From assembly GCA_028064935.1 (NCBI GenBank), contig JAPTWT010000258.1, positions 1 to 9,612 on the forward strand: 9,612 bases of DNA. The letters run 5' to 3'. The position numbers and the translations under genes were made by a program. This DNA comes from Gammaproteobacteria bacterium (GTDB taxonomy: Bacteria > Pseudomonadota > Gammaproteobacteria > Acidiferrobacterales > Acidiferrobacteraceae). This document shows, piece after piece, positions 1,827 through 9,349 of this stretch. The notes beneath the pieces were generated by a model, which saw only the letters and a list, made by a program, of their open reading frames with translations, was not told the DNA's origin and ran no database searches. Position 1 is the stretch's first letter; each line of letters opens with the position of its first letter.

Positions 1827-3017
1827 GTGCTCGATGTGGGGGCTATTGCCCTATCCTCGCTGCCCGCATCGACGGCTGCGACTGGCAATCTCGTGCCCTC
1901 GAGCGAAACCGACCCAGGCGCCGACCATTACCGGCAGAGCGCCAACCAGGCGTTGACCGTGTTCGTGGGCGCGCTCAAGGCCTGCAAGCTGCGCTACAAC
2001 TTCACGGACCTCGCCATCCTGCTGCAATCCGGCCTCGCGCTCGAGCAGCTGCTGCGCATGACGCCGCAGGGCCCCGAGCGCATGGCGCTCGACGTGTTCC
2101 TTGACAAGTTCCGCAAGGGCACGCCACAAGGCGTGCAAATCGACGTGAACAAGATGAAGGACACCTTGGGCGGCATGGCCGGGCGCAGTGCGCTGTTCGG
2201 TCAGGGCAAGTTTGGTCAGGTGTTCAACACCTACGCGCCCGAAATCGACTTGGCCGACATCCTGCGCACCAACAAGATGCTCTACGTCATGCTGTCGACC
2301 ATGGCCAAGGACACGGCGGCCCTGAATCTGGGCAAGATGATAGTCTCGGACTTCCGCACGGCGGTGGCCCGGCTGCAGGCCCTGCCGAAGCAGCAACGCC
2401 CGTGGCCGCCTTTTATTGGCGCGCTCGATAGGATGGGCTCCTACGTCATGCAGGGCATCGCCCGGCTCTTCGAGCAGGCGCGGTCGACGCGTGTGGCGCT
2501 CCTGCCGGGGTTTCAGGCGTTCGGCAATCTGCGCGAGGTCTCGGCGGAGTTCGCCGGCATCATCATGCAGAACACGTGCTCGAAGGCGCTGTTCCGTTTC
2601 GGTGGGAATGACTCGGCGGAATCGGCGGCGGAGATGGTCGGCAAGGTGCGGCGCTACCAGCACGGACTGTCTACGTCGGAATCCAGCGGTGAATCCGCCC
2701 ACGTCATCCGCGCCGCCCCGCAATCCTCGCAGAGCGCGTCGGGCAATGTGGGGCACAACTGGTCCGAGCGCGAGGACTTCCGCGTCTCGCCCGACAAACT
2801 GGCGGGCCTCTTGCCCGGCGAATCCATACTGACCGTCGGGGCGCGCGTCTACCATATCATCACGCCACTATTGAAGACGCCCATCGACACCCTGAGGCCC
2901 GACGACTCCGTGCGCGCCGAGTACACCTTCACGCCGATGCACCATCCGACACGCGTGCCGGATGGTGAGCAGGGGCTCCATTTCGACCAGCGTTACAGCG
3001 AATTCATGGCGGGATAG
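1827..3017 (+). pseudogene. TraD/VirD4-like coupling protein, N-terminally truncated
   Basis: The 396-aa open frame matches the C-terminal half of a conjugative type IV coupling protein, the inner-membrane ATPase that delivers the relaxase-DNA complex to the secretion channel. From about residue 30 (DPGADHYRQSANQALTVFVG) it follows the family. It then has KMIVSDFRTAV and the Walker B region at 201-207, and FGNLREVSAEFAGIIMQNT plus ALFRFGGNDSAESAAEMVG (232-271), the TraM-recognition-type domain. The membrane helices and Walker A P-loop are absent; I estimate about 300 N-terminal residues are missing. Walker B reads DRMGSYV where the family has DE, so the catalytic Glu is replaced by Arg. The GTG at 1827 follows a stop at 1815-1817 and has no clear ribosome site. 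It is best read as a relic cut off at its left end beside the toxin/antitoxin module. Confidence 0.75.
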
Positions 3018-3200
3018 CGGCATGTCCCCTTCCTTCTTGTAGGCGCCGTATTCATCGTATTGCTCATCGTCCTGAGCCACATCCCAGGCGTCGAGCACCT
3101 CGTCAAGCCGCTGTTAAGCGGGGTGACGTCGGTGTTTTCGACATTCATGGGTGGCGTTGGCGGGTGGCTGCTATGGGGCATCAAGACGGCCTGGCGTAGC
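3018..3200 (+). pseudogene. relic of a small membrane protein after the coupling protein
   Basis: The frame directly after the coupling-protein stop (TAG 3015-3017) stays open. It encodes a hydrophobic stretch HVPFLLVGAVFIVLLIVLSH followed by GVEHLVKPLLSGVTSVFSTF and GGVGGWLLWGI, about two membrane segments in 60 residues. No clear start is seen: ATG 3022-3024 is one base out of frame, as if the C-run at 3026-3029 had lost a base, and TTG 3060 would cut off half of the first membrane segment. A small inner-membrane gene commonly follows coupling-protein genes in conjugative elements, which is why I read this as real but damaged. The frame continues beyond about 3200 only as antisense of the integrase fragment. 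Confidence 0.33.
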
Positions 3201-3389
3201 AGGACGGTGTCCGCGAGCTGTTTTGGCTTCCGCCTCGCCGGGGGTCTCCGTGGTCAGGGTTTGCTCAGTGGCTCGCGCCCACGCAACGGCTTCCGCACGC
3301 GTAGTAAAGGTTTTGGTTTTGGTGCCGCGTCCATTTAGACGCACACGCGCCTGCCATCCACCCCACGGCCGTTTTGTGATAGATGCCAC
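3200..3389 (-). pseudogene. tyrosine integrase, N-terminal arm-binding fragment
   Basis: From GTG at 3389 the minus strand reads MASITKRPWGGWQARVRLNG, then TKTKTFTTRAEAVAWARATEQ. This is the N-terminal arm-binding domain of island and phage tyrosine integrases (a three-stranded sheet that grips arm-type DNA sites, followed by a helix). Similarity ends about 60 residues in. The SAM-like core-binding and catalytic domains are missing, and sequence related to the conjugative relic takes over near 3200. The frame extends upstream to TTG 3410, but the M-A-S-I-T-K-R start is the family norm. It is the first gene left of the tRNA-like att site and points away from it, the usual place for an integrase. 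It cannot be active. Confidence 0.72.
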
Positions 3390-3463
3390 GGTCGCCCTGC
3401 CTCGTGCCAAATACCCGTCAGGCGCAGCTTGCCATCCTGGTGGATGGAAGGCAATGAACCCGT

Positions 3464-3826: not shown

Positions 3827-4060
3827 ATGCCGAAAACAACGCTCGACGCCAAACAGCTGGCGGCGGTGCTGCACATGAAGCCCTACACGATTACGGACTA
3901 CACAATCAGGCATCCGGAGCGGCTACCACCCTTCATAAAACTCCCCACAGGCAAACCTCTGTGGTTCGAGGAGGACGTGCAGGCGTGGCTGGAAGAGCGG
4001 CACATCAAGGTCCTGCCGCCACAACAGAGTCCCACCGACTTCAGTCGCAAGTGGTGGTAG
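3827..4060 (+). CDS. AlpA/MerR-like helix-turn-helix protein (possible excisionase)
   Basis: A 77-aa protein with one winged helix-turn-helix of the AlpA/HTH_17 type. DAKQLAAVLHMKPYTITDYT forms the first helices (residues 7-26), PPFIKLPTGKPLWF is the wing, and EEDVQAWLEER is the closing helix (49-59). The first half stands where the family puts its 'LAE.LGVS..TV' segment. Proteins of this type act as excisionases or as activators of integrase and alpA-regulated genes in island elements. Its position 225 bp from the tRNA-like att core and next to the 11-bp repeats supports a recombination-directionality role for the right-hand element. The ribosome site is weak, and the ATG was chosen because the fold starts a few residues later. 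Confidence 0.7.
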   Translation: MPKTTLDAKQLAAVLHMKPYTITDYTIRHPERLPPFIKLPTGKPLWFEEDVQAWLEERHIKVLPPQQSPTDFSRKWW

Positions 4061-4153
4061 CGCGCCCCGGCAAGGCTGATTGTGTTTGCAGACAAAGCCC
4101 ATGGCGCGATACATTGCCGCACGCGAACCGCTGCGTATGTCCCCGACGTTATA

Positions 4154-4183
4154 TGCTATAATTGTAGCCTATTTGTTATAGGC
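4154..4183 (+). promoter_or_regulatory. extended -10 promoter and operator of addiction module
   Basis: TGCTATAAT (4154-4162) is a perfect extended -10. Five bases on, GCCTAT (4167-4172) and ATAGGC (4178-4183) form a perfect 6-bp inverted repeat around TTGTT, between the -10 and the ribosome binding site. A palindrome here would overlap the transcription start, fitting autorepression by the antitoxin as in related modules. No clear -35 is seen. GGAGG (4185-4189) precedes the ATG. Confidence 0.6.
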
Positions 4184-4193
4184 AGGAGGGGCC

Positions 4194-4418
4194 ATGTTGG
4201 CATCCGAACTCGAGAGGGTCGCGCGTACGCTGTCCGCCGAAGAGCGGGCGCGACTCGCTGAGGTACTCCTGGAGTCTCTTCAGGAGACGCCGGCAGCCGA
4301 GGTGGCGACGGCCTGGAACCGGGAGATAGAGGCCCGTATCCGTGCCTATGAGCGCGGTGAACTCGAAAGCCCCAGCGCCGAAGCCGTTTTTGCGGAAGCA
4401 CGCCTCCTCGCTCGGTGA
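4194..4418 (+). CDS. addiction-module antitoxin (RelB-like, TIGR02574 type)
   Basis: A 74-aa protein of the 'putative addiction module component' family. The N-terminal half LASELERVARTLSAEERARL is followed by AEVLLESL, a helical dimerisation region. The segment W-N-R-E-I-E-A-R-I and the tail YERGELESPSAEAVFAEAR are the usual toxin-wrapping region, and the helix ending in EVFA-like sequence is typical. Start ATG 4194 has GGAGG nearby. The stop TGA (4416-4418) overlaps the GTG start of the toxin gene, giving tight coupling. It looks intact while the toxin is interrupted, so it may now act alone as a DNA-binding or anti-addiction protein. Confidence 0.86.
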   Translation: MLASELERVARTLSAEERARLAEVLLESLQETPAAEVATAWNREIEARIRAYERGELESPSAEAVFAEARLLAR

Positions 4419-4705
4419 GACGGGCGCGTTTCCTGGCGCCCGCGCGCGAGGAGTTTCTCGCTGAAGTCGCCTGCTACGACGAGATTCATGTGGGCTATGG
4501 AGCCCGGTTCGCGGCCGCAGTGGAAGAAACAGTGGCTCGGGCCGTGGCCTTCCCGGAATCCGGCTCCCCGCTTTGGGCGGGAACGCGTCGCGTCTACACC
4601 AAAGGCTTTCCCTTCTCCATCGTATAGCGGCCGGAACCCGACGGGGTCGTCATTGTGGCGGTCGCTCATCAGTCGCGGCGTCCTGGTTATTGGCGCGCGC
4701 GATGA
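4415..4705 (+). pseudogene. ParE/RelE-type toxin interrupted by an in-frame TAG
   Basis: From GTG 4415 the frame gives RRARFLAPAREEFLAEVACYD, then YGARFAAAVEETVARAVAFPESG and RRVYTKGFPFSIV, then TAG at 4625-4627. Past it the same frame continues as RPEPDGVVIVAVAHQSRRPGYW and ends at TGA 4703-4705, which is exactly the C-terminal half of the ParE/RelE fold (F-P-Y-S-I-V-Y-R, then V-V-A-V-A-H-x-x-R-x-P-G-Y-W). The stop stands where the family has Tyr (TAT or TAC), so a single base change is enough to explain it. The intact product would be 96 residues, a normal length. The 70-aa fragment lacks the last strands and the A-H-x-x-R-R active region and should be inactive. It overlaps the antitoxin gene by four bases. 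Confidence 0.86.
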
Positions 4706-4825
4706 GGAGACGGGCGCCGAGGCCGGCCGGACCGTCCGTACGCCGGTCGCCATCCCTTACTGCTCGAGGGCGTGTCACACACCCAGCCCAAACGTCGAGC
4801 TCTCAGCCCACGGCGTTGCCGGCGC

Positions 4826-4851
4826 GGGACTGTGGGTCCCCACACGGTCCC
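4826..4851. repeat. strong hairpin upstream of the tandem hairpin units
   Basis: GGGAC plus TGTGG (4826-4835) pairs with CCACA (4840-4844) and GTCCC (4847-4851), with a CG bulge and a GTCC loop. That is ten base pairs in 26 bases. No T-run follows on either strand, so it is not an obvious terminator. It lies in the otherwise gene-free stretch 4706-4958, where I see no other feature, and may belong with the structured region to its right. Confidence 0.45.
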
Positions 4852-4958
4852 GTAACTACCGGGGCAAGGCGTCCGCCAAAGTGTCCGCGCAGGGGAAGTA
4901 CAAGGGGTGTGAGGCCGGCCGGGGGTTAGGGGCTGGTTATGGGGCTAGGTGAGCATAT

Positions 4959-5084
4959 CCGCTCCAAAATTCGCGCGGCATACCAGCCAGCGCCACGAAT
5001 TTTGGAGGATGTTTTCGCGTACCCCGACCTCGAGGGGCGCCACTCGAGGTCGGGGAGGCCTGCCGTCTCGGCGCGCCTCGCGGA
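4959..5084. repeat. structured tandem unit 1 (two hairpins)
   Basis: The unit begins CCGCTCCAAAATTC. Hairpin A has arms CTCCAAAATTCG (4962-4973) and CGAATTTTGGAG (4996-5007), a perfect 12-bp stem with a 22-base loop containing ACCAGCC. A linker with TGTTTTCGCGTA follows. Hairpin B then has arms CCCCGACCTCGAG (5022-5034) and CTCGAGGTCGGGG (5043-5055), a perfect 13-bp stem with an 8-base loop. The unit ends GGCCTGC...CTCGCGGA. Frames across the two units do not stay in step, so it does not look coding. Whether it acts as DNA or RNA, and on which strand, is not visible. Confidence 0.85.
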
Positions 5085-5086
5085 AA

Positions 5087-5207
5087 CCGCTCCAAAATTC
5101 ACGCGCCCAACCAGCACGCGGATGAGAATTTTGGAGGTGTTTCCGCGTAAGTCCTGCCTCGCAGGGTGCGAGGCAGGATGGGCCTGCGAAGATGCGTGGC
5201 TCGCGGA
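5087..5207. repeat. structured tandem unit 2 (two hairpins)
   Basis: This is a second, diverged copy of the preceding unit, offset by 128 bp at the left arm of hairpin A and 129 bp at the right arm. Hairpin A keeps its stem, CTCCAAAATTC (5090-5100) and GAATTTTGGAG (5126-5136), around a 25-base loop that again contains ACCAGC. Hairpin B has arms TCCTGCCTCGC (5152-5162) and GCGAGGCAGGA (5168-5178) with a 5-base loop. These arms are unlike those of unit 1 but again perfectly complementary. The tail again shows GGCCTGC and CTCGCGGA, followed by a bare CCG as if a third unit began and was lost. Confidence 0.85.
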
Positions 5208-5218
5208 TGCCGTTGGAT

Positions 5219-5244
5219 AAAAAAGCCCCTCTTATCGAGGGGCT
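5219..5244 (-). terminator. intrinsic terminator of the 134-aa protein gene
   Basis: AGCCCCTC (5224-5231) and GAGGGGCT (5237-5244) form an 8-bp stem around TTATC. On the minus strand the stem is followed by six T (complement of 5219-5224). It therefore ends leftward transcription from the gene at 5307-5711 and separates that transcript from the tandem hairpin units. Confidence 0.87.
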
Positions 5245-5306
5245 ATGCTCTGTCGGCGCCGTACCAAAGCCCATAGGCCCTGCCATGAGCGAGGGCGCCC
5301 AACAAT

Positions 5307-5711
5307 TTAACGCGCGCAATCCGTTTCCGTCATTGCCGGCCGACCAGCCATTCGGCCGGCAATGATGGCTGGTTGGATGACACCTTGACTCAAGACGATG
5401 CGGCGCGTGGCCGCCGGGGCTCCGCGCCCGGATTGGGTCCAGAGGTCTCGCGCCCAGCGTCGGAGCCCCACTAGCACCTCGCGCGAGTGGGCGGACCGGG
5501 GAACCCAAAAGGGCACAATCCGCCCGTCGCTCCAGCAATAATCCACGACCAACCCCCGGTCGGGGCAGGCCCCGCGCAGGACAATACGTGCGGGGCGCGC
5601 ATAGGCGACATAGCGAATGAGGGGAAACCGAGCCCACAGGGCCAGGGCCTCCGGGCTCGCGGGTTGGCTCTCCTCGCTTCCGTCCGTGCGGGTAATGGTT
5701 GTCGTCAACAT
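5307..5711 (-). CDS. unknown 134-aa protein
   Basis: A small leftward gene of unknown function. The start is supported by GGAGGAG six bases before the ATG at 5711, and an intrinsic terminator follows about 60 bp after the stop. The N-terminus (about residues 1-20) is polar and Ser/Thr/Glu-rich. Residues 21-90 look like a compact alpha/beta domain: ALALWARFPLIRYVAYARPA, then IVLRGACPDRGLVVDYCWSD and IVPFWVPRSAHSREVLVGL. The tail after about 100 is Arg-rich. There is no signal peptide or membrane helix. The end of the reading frame (5330-5372) is occupied by a strong DNA palindrome, so the C-terminal 18 or so residues may be shaped by DNA or RNA structure rather than protein need. I recognise no family. 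Confidence 0.6.
   Translation of the reverse strand: MLTTTITRTDGSEESQPASPEALALWARFPLIRYVAYARPARIVLRGACPDRGLVVDYCWSDGRIVPFWVPRSAHSREVLVGLRRWARDLWTQSGRGAPAATRRIVLSQGVIQPAIIAGRMAGRPAMTETDCAR
5330..5372. repeat. 14-bp-arm palindrome with pseudoknot potential
   Basis: TCATTGCCGGCCGA (5330-5343) and TCGGCCGGCAATGA (5352-5365) are perfect 14-base inverted arms around the loop CCAGCCAT. The loop is itself complementary to ATGGCTGG at 5365-5372, directly after the stem. Loop and flank could therefore pair as an H-type pseudoknot or switch to another fold. It overlaps the 3' end of the 134-aa coding sequence. The loop carries the same ACCAGC(C) motif as the A hairpins of the tandem units. Confidence 0.75.
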
Positions 5712-5721
5712 GGCGTCTCCT

Positions 5722-5739
5722 CCGTGGTGTCGAACACGG
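5722..5739. promoter_or_regulatory. possible operator at the ribosome site of the 134-aa gene
   Basis: CCGTG (5722-5726) and CACGG (5735-5739) flank an inner GTGT/ACAC pair around CGA. The near-palindrome lies just upstream of the GGAGGAG ribosome site of the leftward gene. It could be a repressor site or an mRNA hairpin. No clear -10/-35 was found in 5740-5974, and I see no other gene in that 263-bp gap. Confidence 0.25.
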
Positions 5740-5974
5740 GGGTGTAGGGGCGCGGGGAAATTCGGGGGTAAGTGACAGCCTGAAAACTCGCTGGGCCCAT
5801 TCTGGCCCGCCCGACACCACGCAACTGTCGCCGCCCAGCTCTTGCGTTAGCGCGAATCCGACGTGCGACTTGGCTCGCGACGTTACGGACGCGCACCATC
5901 GGTCGCAAACTGTCGTGACACACACGGCACCCGCCAGCAGCACGCGCTTCGCTTGGGCTCAGCCGGCGGGGCTC

Positions 5975-6976
5975 TCAGATGGTTGCGATGAGCGTGTTCA
6001 CAGCCGTTCTGTATCGCTCGAGAGGTTCCGTGTTGACTTGTGGCCGGGTATTGTGGACATCGTACTGGCCGGGCTTGATGGCATACAGGGGCAGCCCCTT
6101 GTGCGAGCACACGATGGCCACGGAGTGGCTGTCCGGAACGTCCGGAAAGGTAGGCCCGCTCGGAACGAAGGCGTCAGGCTTGGCCTCCTTGAGGGCCCCA
6201 ACGCGCCGCTTGATTTCGTCGAACATCGCGGTGAAGGCTTTGCTCGCTTTCTGGTTGTACTGTGTCGAGCGGTTGAGCACGACCGCGTGAATCCGCGGCA
6301 ACTGGAGGCCGAACTGGGCGGCCCTTCCGGAGAAATTGGCCGCCCCGTAGTGACTGTCGACCTGCAGGCCATACAGCAGCGAGCCGACGTTGTCTACGGC
6401 CCGCGCGGAGGAGCCGTCGCTTGAGCAGGGAATGATAAGCGCTTCCGCCGCTACCATCGAGAGTTCCGTGTAGGCGGAGAAGCTGGGGTTGCAGTCGATG
6501 AACACCATGGTCTCGGGGCCAAGCTTCTCGACACAGCTGGTTGTCAGGTCGAGCAGCCAACTGTGAACGGTTTGCCAGGAATTGGCTGGTAGTGTCTGCG
6601 AGCTAATCTGGTTGATCACCTGGGCTTGCAGCTCCAGGCTTGGGTCCCCGGCCACGAGGTGGACTCCTTCGGGCAGGGCGCTGTTTATGACGTGCGCGTC
6701 GAGCAGGTAGTCAGTCTCGTGCCCTGTTTTTCCGTGGGGCGATTGCAGCCTCGAGTCGAAATAGCCGCCGACTGTCTGGCGGGTCTGAATAAGGCTCGTG
6801 AGCCGCTCGGAGCCTGTCCCGTTCCCACCCAGCACGATTTCCGACAGGTTGGCCTGCGGGCACATATCGACCAGCACAATCGGGATACCGCGTTCTTTGG
6901 CAATCTCCGTGGCCAGCACGAAGGACAAAAATGTCTTGCCGACGCCACCCTTGTTGTTCCAGACCGCGTATCGCAT
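5975..6976 (-). CDS. parA: ParA/MinD-family ATPase
   Basis: A 333-aa P-loop ATPase of the ParA type, which binds DNA non-specifically in its ATP form and positions plasmids or other cargo. The deviant Walker A is KGGVGKT at residues 9-15, with the signature Lys at 9. The A' region is IVLVDMCPQANLSE (33-46), with Met-Cys where most have D-P. Walker B is MVFIDCNPSFSAYTEL (157-172). PCSSDGSSARAVDNV (183-197) is a typical switch segment. There is no N-terminal helix-turn-helix, so it resembles the small-type ParA but is longer because of a C-terminal extension (about 240-333). The ATG at 6976 puts Walker A nine residues in, as is usual; the frame stays open to 7123, but that part is not ParA-like. 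No ParB gene is visible beside it. Confidence 0.9.
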   Translation of the reverse strand: MRYAVWNNKGGVGKTFLSFVLATEIAKERGIPIVLVDMCPQANLSEIVLGGNGTGSERLTSLIQTRQTVGGYFDSRLQSPHGKTGHETDYLLDAHVINSALPEGVHLVAGDPSLELQAQVINQISSQTLPANSWQTVHSWLLDLTTSCVEKLGPETMVFIDCNPSFSAYTELSMVAAEALIIPCSSDGSSARAVDNVGSLLYGLQVDSHYGAANFSGRAAQFGLQLPRIHAVVLNRSTQYNQKASKAFTAMFDEIKRRVGALKEAKPDAFVPSGPTFPDVPDSHSVAIVCSHKGLPLYAIKPGQYDVHNTRPQVNTEPLERYRTAVNTLIATI

Positions 6977-7169
6977 CCGCCGGGACCCCTTCTTGTTGTT
7001 CTGAGGGTAGTTAGGGTACATCTCGTTGTGTATTGGGGACAAGGGAGCCATAGATGGCCTCGAAGTGACTGACATCATTCCTATTCGCCTTAGGTCCCGC
7101 CAAAAATTCACCATCCCAAACATCCGGGTCGCCGGCTCACCGGGCTCAAGCCGGGCCGGAAATCCCCTT

Positions 7170-7197
7170 TTGTGCTACGCCTTGGTTGCAACATAAT
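7170..7197 (+). promoter_or_regulatory. possible promoter of the rightward cluster
   Basis: TTGTGC (7170-7175) and CATAAT (7192-7197) stand 16 bases apart, an acceptable sigma70-type pair, about 100 bases upstream of the 43-aa gene. The surrounding 6977-7297 stretch is the divergent intergenic region between parA and the rightward cluster. It also holds CCGGCT/AGCCGG inverted arms (7132-7137, 7149-7154). No convincing leftward promoter for parA was found. Confidence 0.35.
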
Positions 7198-7239
7198 TTC
7201 CACAGTCGTAAACTCTTTCCAGAGCGGCGGGGTCTTGGT

Positions 7240-7253
7240 TGTGGCAGGCCACA
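7240..7253. promoter_or_regulatory. candidate operator palindrome
   Basis: TGTGGC (7240-7245) and GCCACA (7248-7253) form a perfect inverted repeat with a 2-base centre between the possible promoter and the ribosome site of the 43-aa gene. It is a plausible binding site for a dimeric repressor controlling the cluster. The protein is unknown. Confidence 0.33.
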
Positions 7254-7297
7254 GCGCTCATGGCGTGTCTGGTGCGTGGAAAAGAAAGGAGATAATC

Positions 7298-7448: not shown

Positions 7449-8435
7449 GTGAACGAAGTTGCGGCGGACCTGGAAAAGGTGTTTCGGGGTGACGTCGAGC
7501 GCATAGCCGACAGCTTCATCCAGGCGTTCAACCTTACGTTTGCCAGAGAAAACCGGCATCTCTCCTACGCCCCCTATCGGTGGCTGGAATTCGCGCTCAT
7601 GCGTTATGTCACGCCGGCTCCCAGGCAGGTGCTCTTTTCGCATGGCTTTTGGCGACGGGCGCCTAAAGAGGCAGGGGCTGCGGTTGACGACTTCGCGCAT
7701 CGGATGCGCCACGGCGAGGACATCAACGCGTATCAGGGGCGGGGGCTGACGATGAATGATGTCAGTGGCGCCGGGCAACGCCAGAGAACAGACCTCCTGC
7801 TGGCCGATTTCGGTATTCACCATTTTCACCTGACCGACGAGCCTCTCGTGCCAGAAAAGGTCTATTCCAGGCGGTCAAATTGGCTGCTGTTCGCTGTAGT
7901 GCGCGCGGATGCCTTGCTATTTGTGGACGTGCTAAGCCACCCGAAAGGCATGGAGTGGGCCCAAAAGGATGTGCTGGAAACTGCGGTGGAGAACTGGCCG
8001 CAGGCGTTTGCGCATTGCGAGGTGAAGGGCGTGACTGGTGCAGATTGGAGTGACGAGAAAATAGACCATCTGCGTGGATATGGGGTAAATACGCCACACA
8101 GGATTGGGTCTCGGGTCTACTGCGCCATAAATGGTGGGCTCACCAGCGCAGGGACACCATTATTGGTCCACAGGGCGGCGGACCGCATCCAGTGCGAGAT
8201 TGCGGATTTGGTGCGTCAATTCGCGGACCAAAACAACCCGATGGTGCAGCTCTGCCGCGAGCGCGGTGTCCGCGGGCCCGAGTTCCGTATCGTTCTCGCG
8301 CCGGAAGGCATAGCCGTTGCCGAGCAGACGACATTAATAGGCGCGGTGCTCACGGAATGGCCGGGATTGTCAGCGCTCGCACCGTCGTGGGCTATCTCTC
8401 GGCTCACAGCGTTCTGCGCCAAAATACCGCCCTAA
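7449..8435 (+). CDS. unknown 328-aa protein with DFGIHHFHL motif
   Basis: Starts at GTG 7449, close after the 43-aa gene; GGAGAGG lies rather far upstream, so translational coupling is possible. The middle carries the striking motif D-F-G-I-H-H-F-H-L (120-128), a hydrophobic strand NWLLFAVVRADALLFVDVLSH (144-164, with D160 and H164), W170 and ENWPQAF (181-187). I have seen this combination (LL.DWGIHHLHLG, then LLF...(ILV)..H, then W...LL..I..NWP) in uncharacterised proteins from bacterial islands. Closely spaced Asp and His residues suggest a metal-binding or nuclease-like centre, but that is inference. The C-terminal third (ADRIQCEIADLVRQF onward) is helical. There is no signal peptide or membrane helix. 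Its place upstream of hsdM suggests an accessory defence role. Confidence 0.8.
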   Translation: MNEVAADLEKVFRGDVERIADSFIQAFNLTFARENRHLSYAPYRWLEFALMRYVTPAPRQVLFSHGFWRRAPKEAGAAVDDFAHRMRHGEDINAYQGRGLTMNDVSGAGQRQRTDLLLADFGIHHFHLTDEPLVPEKVYSRRSNWLLFAVVRADALLFVDVLSHPKGMEWAQKDVLETAVENWPQAFAHCEVKGVTGADWSDEKIDHLRGYGVNTPHRIGSRVYCAINGGLTSAGTPLLVHRAADRIQCEIADLVRQFADQNNPMVQLCRERGVRGPEFRIVLAPEGIAVAEQTTLIGAVLTEWPGLSALAPSWAISRLTAFCAKIPP

Positions 8436-8455: not shown

Positions 8456-9349
8456 ATGAGCAGCGGTGCGAGGGGAGGGGTCGTGGGGCGCGAGCTTGGT
8501 GTGAAAACAAGCGCGGGAGACGTGTTTGAGTACCGGAACGGGATGTTCCGGGAGGCTTGGCCGCCGCCCGCGGTGTCGTCGGCGATGTTCATTGTCGAGG
8601 ACCAGAAACCAGTCGCCGCGATGCTGGATTTGTCGCAAGCCAATCATATTTTCAGGGAAGACAGTTTTGACGCGACCACGCGCATCCGTCGCGGGCGGTT
8701 TTATAGGCGCAATGGCATCCCTCGCACAATGTGTGCGAAAGGCCATGATGGCCCGGATTTTCATCCTTGGATACAGTCATTCTTGGCCGAGAACTCGAGG
8801 CCGCCCACCAGGCTCGTCGCCATCGGCGTCGAGGATTCCTTCTGGCGCATTCTCAGCGCCGAATGCATCACAACGGGCGAGTGGCTGGTGACGCTTAAGG
8901 CCCGCGGCGGCGCGGGCTTGCTGCCGGAGGTGGATGACGACAAGGTTCCCGCGCTCGGGAGGGCCGAGGTAGTGAAGGCTGTCGACCACATGGTCGACGT
9001 AGCCCACCGAGAGACGCCCGGCTCCATCGTGGATGTAGCGCGCAATACGGCGGCGTTCTTGATGGGAGTGTACGCGGCAGGACTGGAAACAGACGCCAGT
9101 AAGCAGCGGGAGATACGGCACAAGGACCTCAGCAAGGTTTGCACCCATTTCGAAAGCCACCCTAAGTTAAAGAAGCAGGAAGTTGCGATTTCTACGGGCC
9201 GCATATTGGCCCGCCTGCATCCGCGCAATAAGCCCAACGAACAGCAGCGGCATGGTCTGCGTCCGGTCACCGAGGATGATGCCACCTTCGCCGTAAGTGC
9301 CATAGGCCTCCTTCTCAACGAATTCGCATGGACCCCACAAAACGCATGA
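8456..9349 (+). CDS. unknown 297-aa protein, possible HEPN-like C-terminus
   Basis: ATG 8456 lies 20 bases after the previous stop. The frame is open further upstream, but only inside the preceding gene. The N-terminal half (residues 10-150) looks like a mixed alpha/beta domain with SSAMFIVEDQ and a following hydrophobic stretch, and an Arg-rich segment around 76-90. The C-terminal half is helical: VDHMVDVAHRETPGSIVDVA (176-195), RNTAAFLMGVYAA, then STGRILARLHPRNKPNEQQR and HGLRPVTEDDATFAVSAIGL. The RN (257-258) and HG (266-267) pair followed by a helix with T-E-D-D-A resembles the end of Abi/HEPN-type RNase domains, but the spacing is wider than the classic R-x4-6-H. The stop overlaps the hsdM start (ATGA), so the two are translationally coupled. 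The function is unknown. Confidence 0.8.
   Translation: MSSGARGGVVGRELGVKTSAGDVFEYRNGMFREAWPPPAVSSAMFIVEDQKPVAAMLDLSQANHIFREDSFDATTRIRRGRFYRRNGIPRTMCAKGHDGPDFHPWIQSFLAENSRPPTRLVAIGVEDSFWRILSAECITTGEWLVTLKARGGAGLLPEVDDDKVPALGRAEVVKAVDHMVDVAHRETPGSIVDVARNTAAFLMGVYAAGLETDASKQREIRHKDLSKVCTHFESHPKLKKQEVAISTGRILARLHPRNKPNEQQRHGLRPVTEDDATFAVSAIGLLLNEFAWTPQNA

What the first reader, a model, noticed from the sequence alone, without database searches (positions are those of the whole stretch)
4959..5207. Tandem two-hairpin element with a structure-conserved, sequence-divergent stem
Two ~128-bp units follow each other. Hairpin A is conserved in sequence (11-12 bp perfect stem). Hairpin B has entirely different arms in the two copies (13 bp and 11 bp) yet both are perfectly self-complementary. 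Compensatory change within one locus is the mark of selection for folding, as RNA or as single-stranded DNA. I know no named element with this layout, and it fits none of the genes around it.
Basis: partly seen in the sequence, partly recalled or inferred. Interest (0 to 1): 0.85.

Follow-up and report, generated by a model that had tools for sequence, protein, structure and literature searches.

The report
Twin hairpin repeat beside conjugation genes
A short stretch of apparently non-coding DNA, probably from an acid-loving bacterium, is repeated twice, each copy carrying one hairpin whose letters stayed fixed and one whose letters changed in matched pairs; it looks like a real structured site, but no relatives were found and its job is unproven.

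Summary
Two 128-bp units (4959-5086, 5087-5214) each hold hairpin A (12 and 11 bp), hairpin B (13 and 12 bp) and a small third hairpin C. Perfect hairpins of 11 bp or more: 4 observed; 3 of 1000 shuffles of the stretch had even one. The B arms are not "entirely different": 14 of 26 sites agree, and of 13 pairs 7 are unchanged and 6 changed on both sides. The A core is the opposite: 0 of 22 sites differ, while 16 of 29 unpaired sites differ. So A is held by sequence and B by pairing. Paired change inside one locus is not proof of selection, because template switching also makes it. Best guess: a tandem DNA recognition site in a decayed mobile island. An RNA reading is nearly as likely.

The parts
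4959..5086 (.). Unit 1 of the tandem element
   Evidence: 128-bp direct repeat; model made from unit 2 alone matches 4951-5078 at 42.5 bits
5087..5214 (.). Unit 2 of the tandem element
   Evidence: 128-bp direct repeat; conserved tail CTCGCGGA ends at 5207
4962..5007 (.). Hairpin A, unit 1: arms CTCCAAAATTCG, 12 bp, loop 22
   Evidence: core identical in both units, 22 of 22 sites
5022..5055 (.). Hairpin B, unit 1: 13 bp, loop 8
   Evidence: 6 of 13 pairs differ on both sides from unit 2
5056..5078 (+). Hairpin C, unit 1 (small, imperfect)
   Evidence: plus-strand fold
5079..5147 (.). Hairpin A, unit 2, with its outer extension (core 5090-5136, 11 bp, loop 25; whole arms 22 nt, 91% complementary)
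5152..5178 (.). Hairpin B, unit 2: 12 bp, loop 3 (13 with a G-T pair on the plus strand)
5180..5202 (+). Hairpin C, unit 2 (small, imperfect, two G-U pairs on the plus strand)
   Evidence: plus-strand fold
5224..5244 (-). Terminator-like site for minus-strand transcripts, borders the element
   Evidence: stem of 8 pairs followed by a T run; 2 such sites found in 4150-6100 against a shuffle mean of 1.8, so weak on count

Best explanation
A non-coding DNA site made of two tandem units, left in a decayed conjugative or integrative island, probably of Acidiferrobacter. In each unit the inverted repeat A (CTCCAAAATTC, 11 bp, 22-25 bp apart) is a sequence-specific binding site for a protein, read in double-stranded or folded form, and B is a hairpin whose folding alone matters, as a cruciform or a single-strand hairpin. 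Shown: the tandem units, the fixed A arms and the paired changes in B. Inferred: that a protein of the mobile element binds A and uses B during transfer, partition or recombination. Unknown: which protein.
For: A core 0 of 22 sites differ, against 16 of 29 unpaired sites and 12 of 26 B sites: a stem kept only for RNA folding would be expected to drift as B did. Both strands fold equally well, as expected of a strand-blind palindrome. Neighbourhood is mobile: coupling-ATPase relative (TrbC profile E 6.6e-9 but far below that model's curated cut-off; 89% to a record named Acidiferrobacterales), ParA, excisionase-like HTH at 3827-4060, addiction-module antitoxin and PIN toxin, PD-T4-7 and HsdM.
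Against: No second case of the layout in anything searched. ParA relatives do not carry it: 0 of 12 loci, with flanks of at most about 1.5 kb in nine of them and only 31 bases downstream in L045. No full recombinase or relaxase gene among the ORFs scanned; a 79-aa ORF at 3171-3410 has only weak HNH, integrase and DUF2188 matches. The absence of promoter-like sites in 4150-6100 is uninformative, since shuffles average only 0.4. The unit-2 C hairpin carries two G-U pairs on the plus strand, which speaks a little for RNA.
Confidence: 0.35

Rival explanations
1. A structured non-coding RNA, two tandem domains of three hairpins each, transcribed on the plus strand, either from its own promoter or as the 3' end of the addiction-module genes whose last ORF ends at 4627.
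For: Strong folding; three hairpins per unit in the same order; 10 of 44 pairs changed on both sides (6 in B, 4 in the outer A extension), shuffle mean 5.0, 0 of 500 shuffles as high, slid versions 0-4 (the alignment is fitted to unit 2's structure, which favours it); wobble pairs 3 and 3 on the plus strand against 1 and 3 on the minus strand.
Against: The A core does not vary at all, and 4 of the 9 outer A pairs are broken in unit 1 in this register; no Rfam match at gathering, and three far below it at E up to 5; minus strand folds as well; no promoter-like site found, though that says little.
Confidence: 0.3
2. A relic with no present function: a duplicated palindromic sequence in a decaying island whose arms are kept complementary by template switching, not by selection.
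For: Template switching can create and repair stems (PMC8794818, abstract). B has 6 two-sided and 0 one-sided changes, which fits single-event repair. The neighbouring coupling ATPase is 396 aa where its five best relatives are 576-578 aa.
Against: It does not explain why A is the same in both units at 22 of 22 sites while the rest diverged, unless conversion acted on A alone.
Confidence: 0.2
3. Ordinary transcription-end hairpins between converging genes, duplicated.
For: Lies between plus-strand ORFs ending at 4627 and a minus-strand ORF ending at 5307. AAAATTC-hairpin-GAATTTT resembles a two-way terminator, and two hits elsewhere overlap a tRNA 3' end: L009 (tRNA-Gly 7190-7263) and L071 (tRNA-Ala 4737-4809); some others lie between converging ORFs by my reading.
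Against: None of the four hairpins passes the terminator scan on either strand.
Confidence: 0.09
4. Degenerate integron attC sites (folded single-strand recombination sites whose stems vary in sequence).
For: The only three RYYYAAC...GTTRRRY box pairs of attC spacing in the window lie here: 5105-5218, 5297-5378 and 5305-5378 (by hand about half a pair would be expected). The bottom strand of 5297-5378 folds with its boxes paired below a 14-bp stem. At 5105-5218 an L-like pairing of 7 with one bulge exists, 5113-5119 with 5194-5201; 8.7% of 3000 random positions do as well. attC sites are known for poor sequence conservation (PMC2727003, passages).
Against: The boxes are not at the base of hairpin A or B and unit 1 has none. 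The bottom strand of 5105-5218 folds as a branched structure. At 5297-5378 the spacers beside the boxes are 3 and over 20 nt and no L pairing above 4-5 was found. No integron integrase seen among the ORFs scanned.
Confidence: 0.06

Closest known systems
Integron attC sites
   Same: Palindromic, folding matters more than sequence, found in mobile DNA (PMC2727003, abstract and passages); attC-like boxes lie close by
   Different: No R boxes at the hairpin bases; two or three separate hairpins per unit; arms of A are fixed in sequence
Plasmid centromeres placed downstream of parA-parB (P1 parS, F sopC; recalled, no call)
   Same: Repeated units with inverted repeats beyond the end of a ParA gene (parA 5978-7123 minus, small ORF 5307-5711 minus, then the repeats)
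   Different: The small ORF has no family match in the libraries tried and only one relative; 12 loci of ParA relatives lack the repeats within the flanks held
Dispersed intergenic palindrome families (REP, ERIC, MITE type; recalled)
   Same: Short non-coding palindromic repeat units
   Different: Only two adjacent copies known; genome-wide copy number could not be checked; one hairpin sequence-fixed, one sequence-free
IS200/IS605 ends (single-strand hairpins), the commonest IS family in strain ZJ, 27 copies (PMC8889020 section 13)
   Same: Hairpins near element ends
   Different: No Y1 transposase among the ORFs scanned with Pfam; perfect 12-13 bp stems that change sequence between copies would not suit sequence-reading recognition (inference)

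Membership tests
Integron attC site | R'' (RYYYAAC) and R' (GTTRRRY) boxes at the two ends of one hairpin | tested here: not met
   box pairs at 5105-5218 and 5297-5378 do not coincide with hairpin A or B; unit 1 has none. (5297-5378, outside the element, does fold with its boxes paired.)
Integron attC site | L'' and L' boxes pairing next to the R boxes with extrahelical base | tested here: inconclusive
   No perfect pairing of 5 or more within the stretch scanned; with one bulge, 7 pairs at 5105-5218, a level reached by 8.7% of 3000 random positions
Rfam RNA family | Score at or above a family's gathering threshold | tested here: not met
   0 matches at gathering over 4227 families for the whole window; three matches at E up to 5 in 4900-5300, all far below gathering
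Intrinsic terminator | GC-rich stem followed directly by a T run | tested here: not met
   hairpins A and B not flagged on either strand
Plasmid centromere (parS/sopC-like) | Conserved linkage of repeats to parA and a centromere-binding protein gene | tested here: not met
   12 loci with ParA relatives (32-58% identity) show no tandem hairpin units within the flanks held; in the E. coli relative the next gene downstream is on the other strand, an HTH gene lies upstream
Plasmid centromere (parS/sopC-like) | Binding by the partition protein | not testable with these tools
   Needs a DNA-binding assay
Dispersed palindrome family (REP/MITE type) | Many copies through the genome | not tested
   No whole genome is held for the window

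The most novel reading that the evidence does not exclude
A new class of two-signal site in mobile DNA: in each tandem unit one palindrome is read by its letters and a neighbouring one only by its fold, so that a protein could first find the site in duplex DNA and then act on an extruded hairpin that is free to change sequence.
Probability: 0.15. Interest if true: 0.65.

Novelty: new variant of a known kind. Interest (0 to 1): 0.38.

Why it matters
If real, the contrast between a sequence-locked and a fold-locked palindrome in the same unit would give a compact system for asking how a protein recognises folded DNA or RNA without sequence. It also shows a practical point for genome scans: paired changes in one locus must be weighed against template switching before they are called selection.

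Tried and rejected
DUF4143 link: a hunch from memory that CTCCAAAATTC hairpins accompany DUF4143 ATPases. All 6 genomes with exact-arm hits have DUF4143 matches, but so do 6 of 14 control genomes, and no such hairpin lies in the 14 DUF4143 loci fetched, which reach about 1.5 kb to each side at most. Dropped.

Exact-arm hits as relatives: 9 stretches in 6 genomes, four of them 57-bp palindromes at four places of one Acidimicrobiales MAG. The flanks of all 9 were read (120 bases before, 160 after or to the end of the locus). None has a second unit or a B hairpin. One (L009), and the viral hit L071, overlap a tRNA 3' end. Against my reading: model R1, over all 9 loci, gives L006 31.6 bits (E 5e-5), L009 19.3 and L001 13.9, and R2 gives L006 27.5 and L003 21.4 (5 of the 9 loci). 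The opposite strand of the window's own element scores 34-35 bits, so any long palindrome with these arms reaches that level, and the L006 alignment, the only one of these printed, has no B stem. The excess of exact-arm hits is not fully explained.

BLAST hits of 79-100% over 20-39 nt in 20 of 385 genomes: 15 of the 20 were held as loci and read; none has the hairpins. Covariance model R2: 0 of 385 genomes at E 0.001 and 1 of 398 at E 0.1 (E 0.0056, no tandem unit on reading). These model searches scored at most 8-9 candidates per genome with strict filters, so they are weak negatives. Pattern for the unit tail: 8 viral stretches, all 8 read, none with hairpin B; 0 of 318 genomes.

ParA-centromere idea: not supported by 12 loci. 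Repeated motif ACCAGC near the loops: 5 in 520 bp and 9 in the rest of the window, not pursued.

Full report
What is there. Two units follow each other with a start-to-start distance of 128 bp. Each has hairpin A, hairpin B and a small hairpin C. The window holds 8 perfect hairpins with stems of 9 bp or more and loops of 3-44; four of the five longest lie in 4962-5178, the fifth (and longest, 14 bp) at 5330-5365. Perfect hairpins of at least 11 bp with loops of 3-30: 4 in 4945-5215, against 3 of 1000 dinucleotide shuffles of that stretch with at least one and 0 with two. Folding energy is far below shuffles on both strands, z -9.38 and -9.39.

How the units differ. A model built from unit 2 alone finds unit 1 at 42.5 bits, E 2.2e-7. 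On the alignment fitted that way (A4), stem B has 13 pairs: 7 unchanged, 6 changed on both sides, none on one side, none broken. By site, B differs at 12 of 26, unpaired positions at 16 of 29 (17 more have gaps), the A core at 0 of 22, the inner A stem at 1 of 8, C at 1 of 14, and the outer A extension at 14 of 18. The outer extension pairs well only in unit 2; in register with unit 2, four of its nine pairs are broken in unit 1 and four are changed on both sides, though unit 1 can form a different short extension. The alignment is fitted to unit 2's structure, which leans towards that structure, and there are only two copies.

What it means. Paired changes are usually read as selection for folding. 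PMC8794818 (abstract and start of introduction) reports that template switching can create and repair stems, so B alone does not prove selection. The A arms are harder to explain without it: they stayed the same while their surroundings changed at about half of sites.

Where it lies. The minus-strand ParA at 5978-7123 is identical over 333 aa to a protein whose longest contig is 3,302,271 bp (P0001, two contigs), and the chromosome of Acidiferrobacter thiooxydans ZJ is given as 3,302,271 bp with 63.61% GC (PMC8889020, passage of section 11). I infer that the window is from that strain. Around the element are a TrbC/TraD-like coupling ATPase, 396 aa where its five best relatives have 576-578, an excisionase-like HTH at 3827-4060, an addiction-module antitoxin at 4194-4418 and a PIN toxin at 1090-1509, the PD-T4-7 defence protein at 7449-8435 (6e-102) and the start of HsdM. 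This is a patchwork of mobile and defence genes. The element lies in the gap between plus-strand ORFs ending at 4627 and a minus-strand ORF ending at 5307, with a minus-strand terminator-like site at 5244-5224. ORFs run through it; the one tested, 4942-5220, has no Pfam match.

Relatives. Rfam: 0 at gathering; three matches at E up to 5, all far below gathering. Plasmids and phages by BLAST: none. Viral contigs by six patterns: 0 hits in four; 4 hits and 8, all 12 read and none alike. In genome contigs (one genome for each of 84,980 species) the exact A arms occur in 9 stretches of 6 genomes. Their flanks were read; none has a second unit or a B hairpin. Four lie in one Acidimicrobiales MAG. 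By hand I would expect about half a hit with even base use, so 9 is an excess; hairpins with A-rich and T-rich arms are common at gene ends, which may account for it, but I did not test that. Models R1 and R2 do score some of these palindromes (best L006, 31.6 bits with R1; 27.5 with R2), about as high as the antisense strand of the window's own element (34-35 bits). Sampled genomes gave 0 of 385 and 1 of 398 by model and short BLAST matches in 20 of 385, 15 of them read and none alike. I do not know that any sampled genome belongs to Acidiferrobacterales, and the model searches scored at most 8-9 candidates per genome, so these negatives are weak.

Mechanism. I put a DNA recognition site first (0.35): a fixed inverted repeat that a protein reads, with a fold-only hairpin beside it. 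Fixed A arms, equal folding of both strands and the mobile neighbourhood fit it. A plus-strand RNA is close behind (0.30). A relic kept palindromic by template switching is possible (0.20). Terminators (0.09) and attC sites (0.06) fit less well; attC-like boxes do lie in and beside unit 2. None of these was shown.

Known or new. It is a member of no family tested here. The statement that I know no report of it rests on Rfam and on the listings of six paper searches for related terms, several of them cut to the first 5-10 papers; none listed such an element. Three papers were opened in part; supplementary files were not read.

Noticed in passing
7449-8435 +: PD-T4-7 phage-defence protein (PADLOC E 6e-102), next to the start of a type I methyltransferase HsdM at 9328: a defence island.
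   Followed up: partly
1827-3017 +: Conjugative coupling ATPase (TrbC/TraD-like), 396 aa where its five closest relatives have 576-578 aa; probably cut short.
   Followed up: partly
L001, L003, L006, L007 (Acidimicrobiales MAG CAJQNJ): Four 57-bp palindromes on four contigs with the same outer arms CTCCAAAATTC; in L003 and L006 the inner arms are near-perfect and differ between copies, in L001 and L007 they are imperfect. Possibly a repeat family of its own.
   Followed up: partly
5330-5373: Nested palindromes (14 bp and 9 bp arms, overlapping) inside the 3' part of a 134-aa minus-strand ORF, with attC-like boxes GCCCAAC at 5297 and GTTGGAT at 5372; the bottom strand of 5297-5378 folds with the boxes paired.
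   Followed up: partly
5307-5711 -: 134-aa ORF with a single relative listed (98%, metagenome contig of 1761 bases) in a search of 5.8 billion proteins.
   Followed up: partly
5978-7123 -: ParA, 57.9% identical to a ParA-family protein of E. coli plasmids (p1493-4, replicon IncY, near KilAC antirepressor genes) and 55.4% to one of Pseudomonas phage phi297.
   Followed up: partly
L009 7154-7194, L071 4708-4742: A hairpin whose arm overlaps the 3' end of a tRNA gene (tRNA-Gly and tRNA-Ala by ARAGORN).
   Followed up: partly
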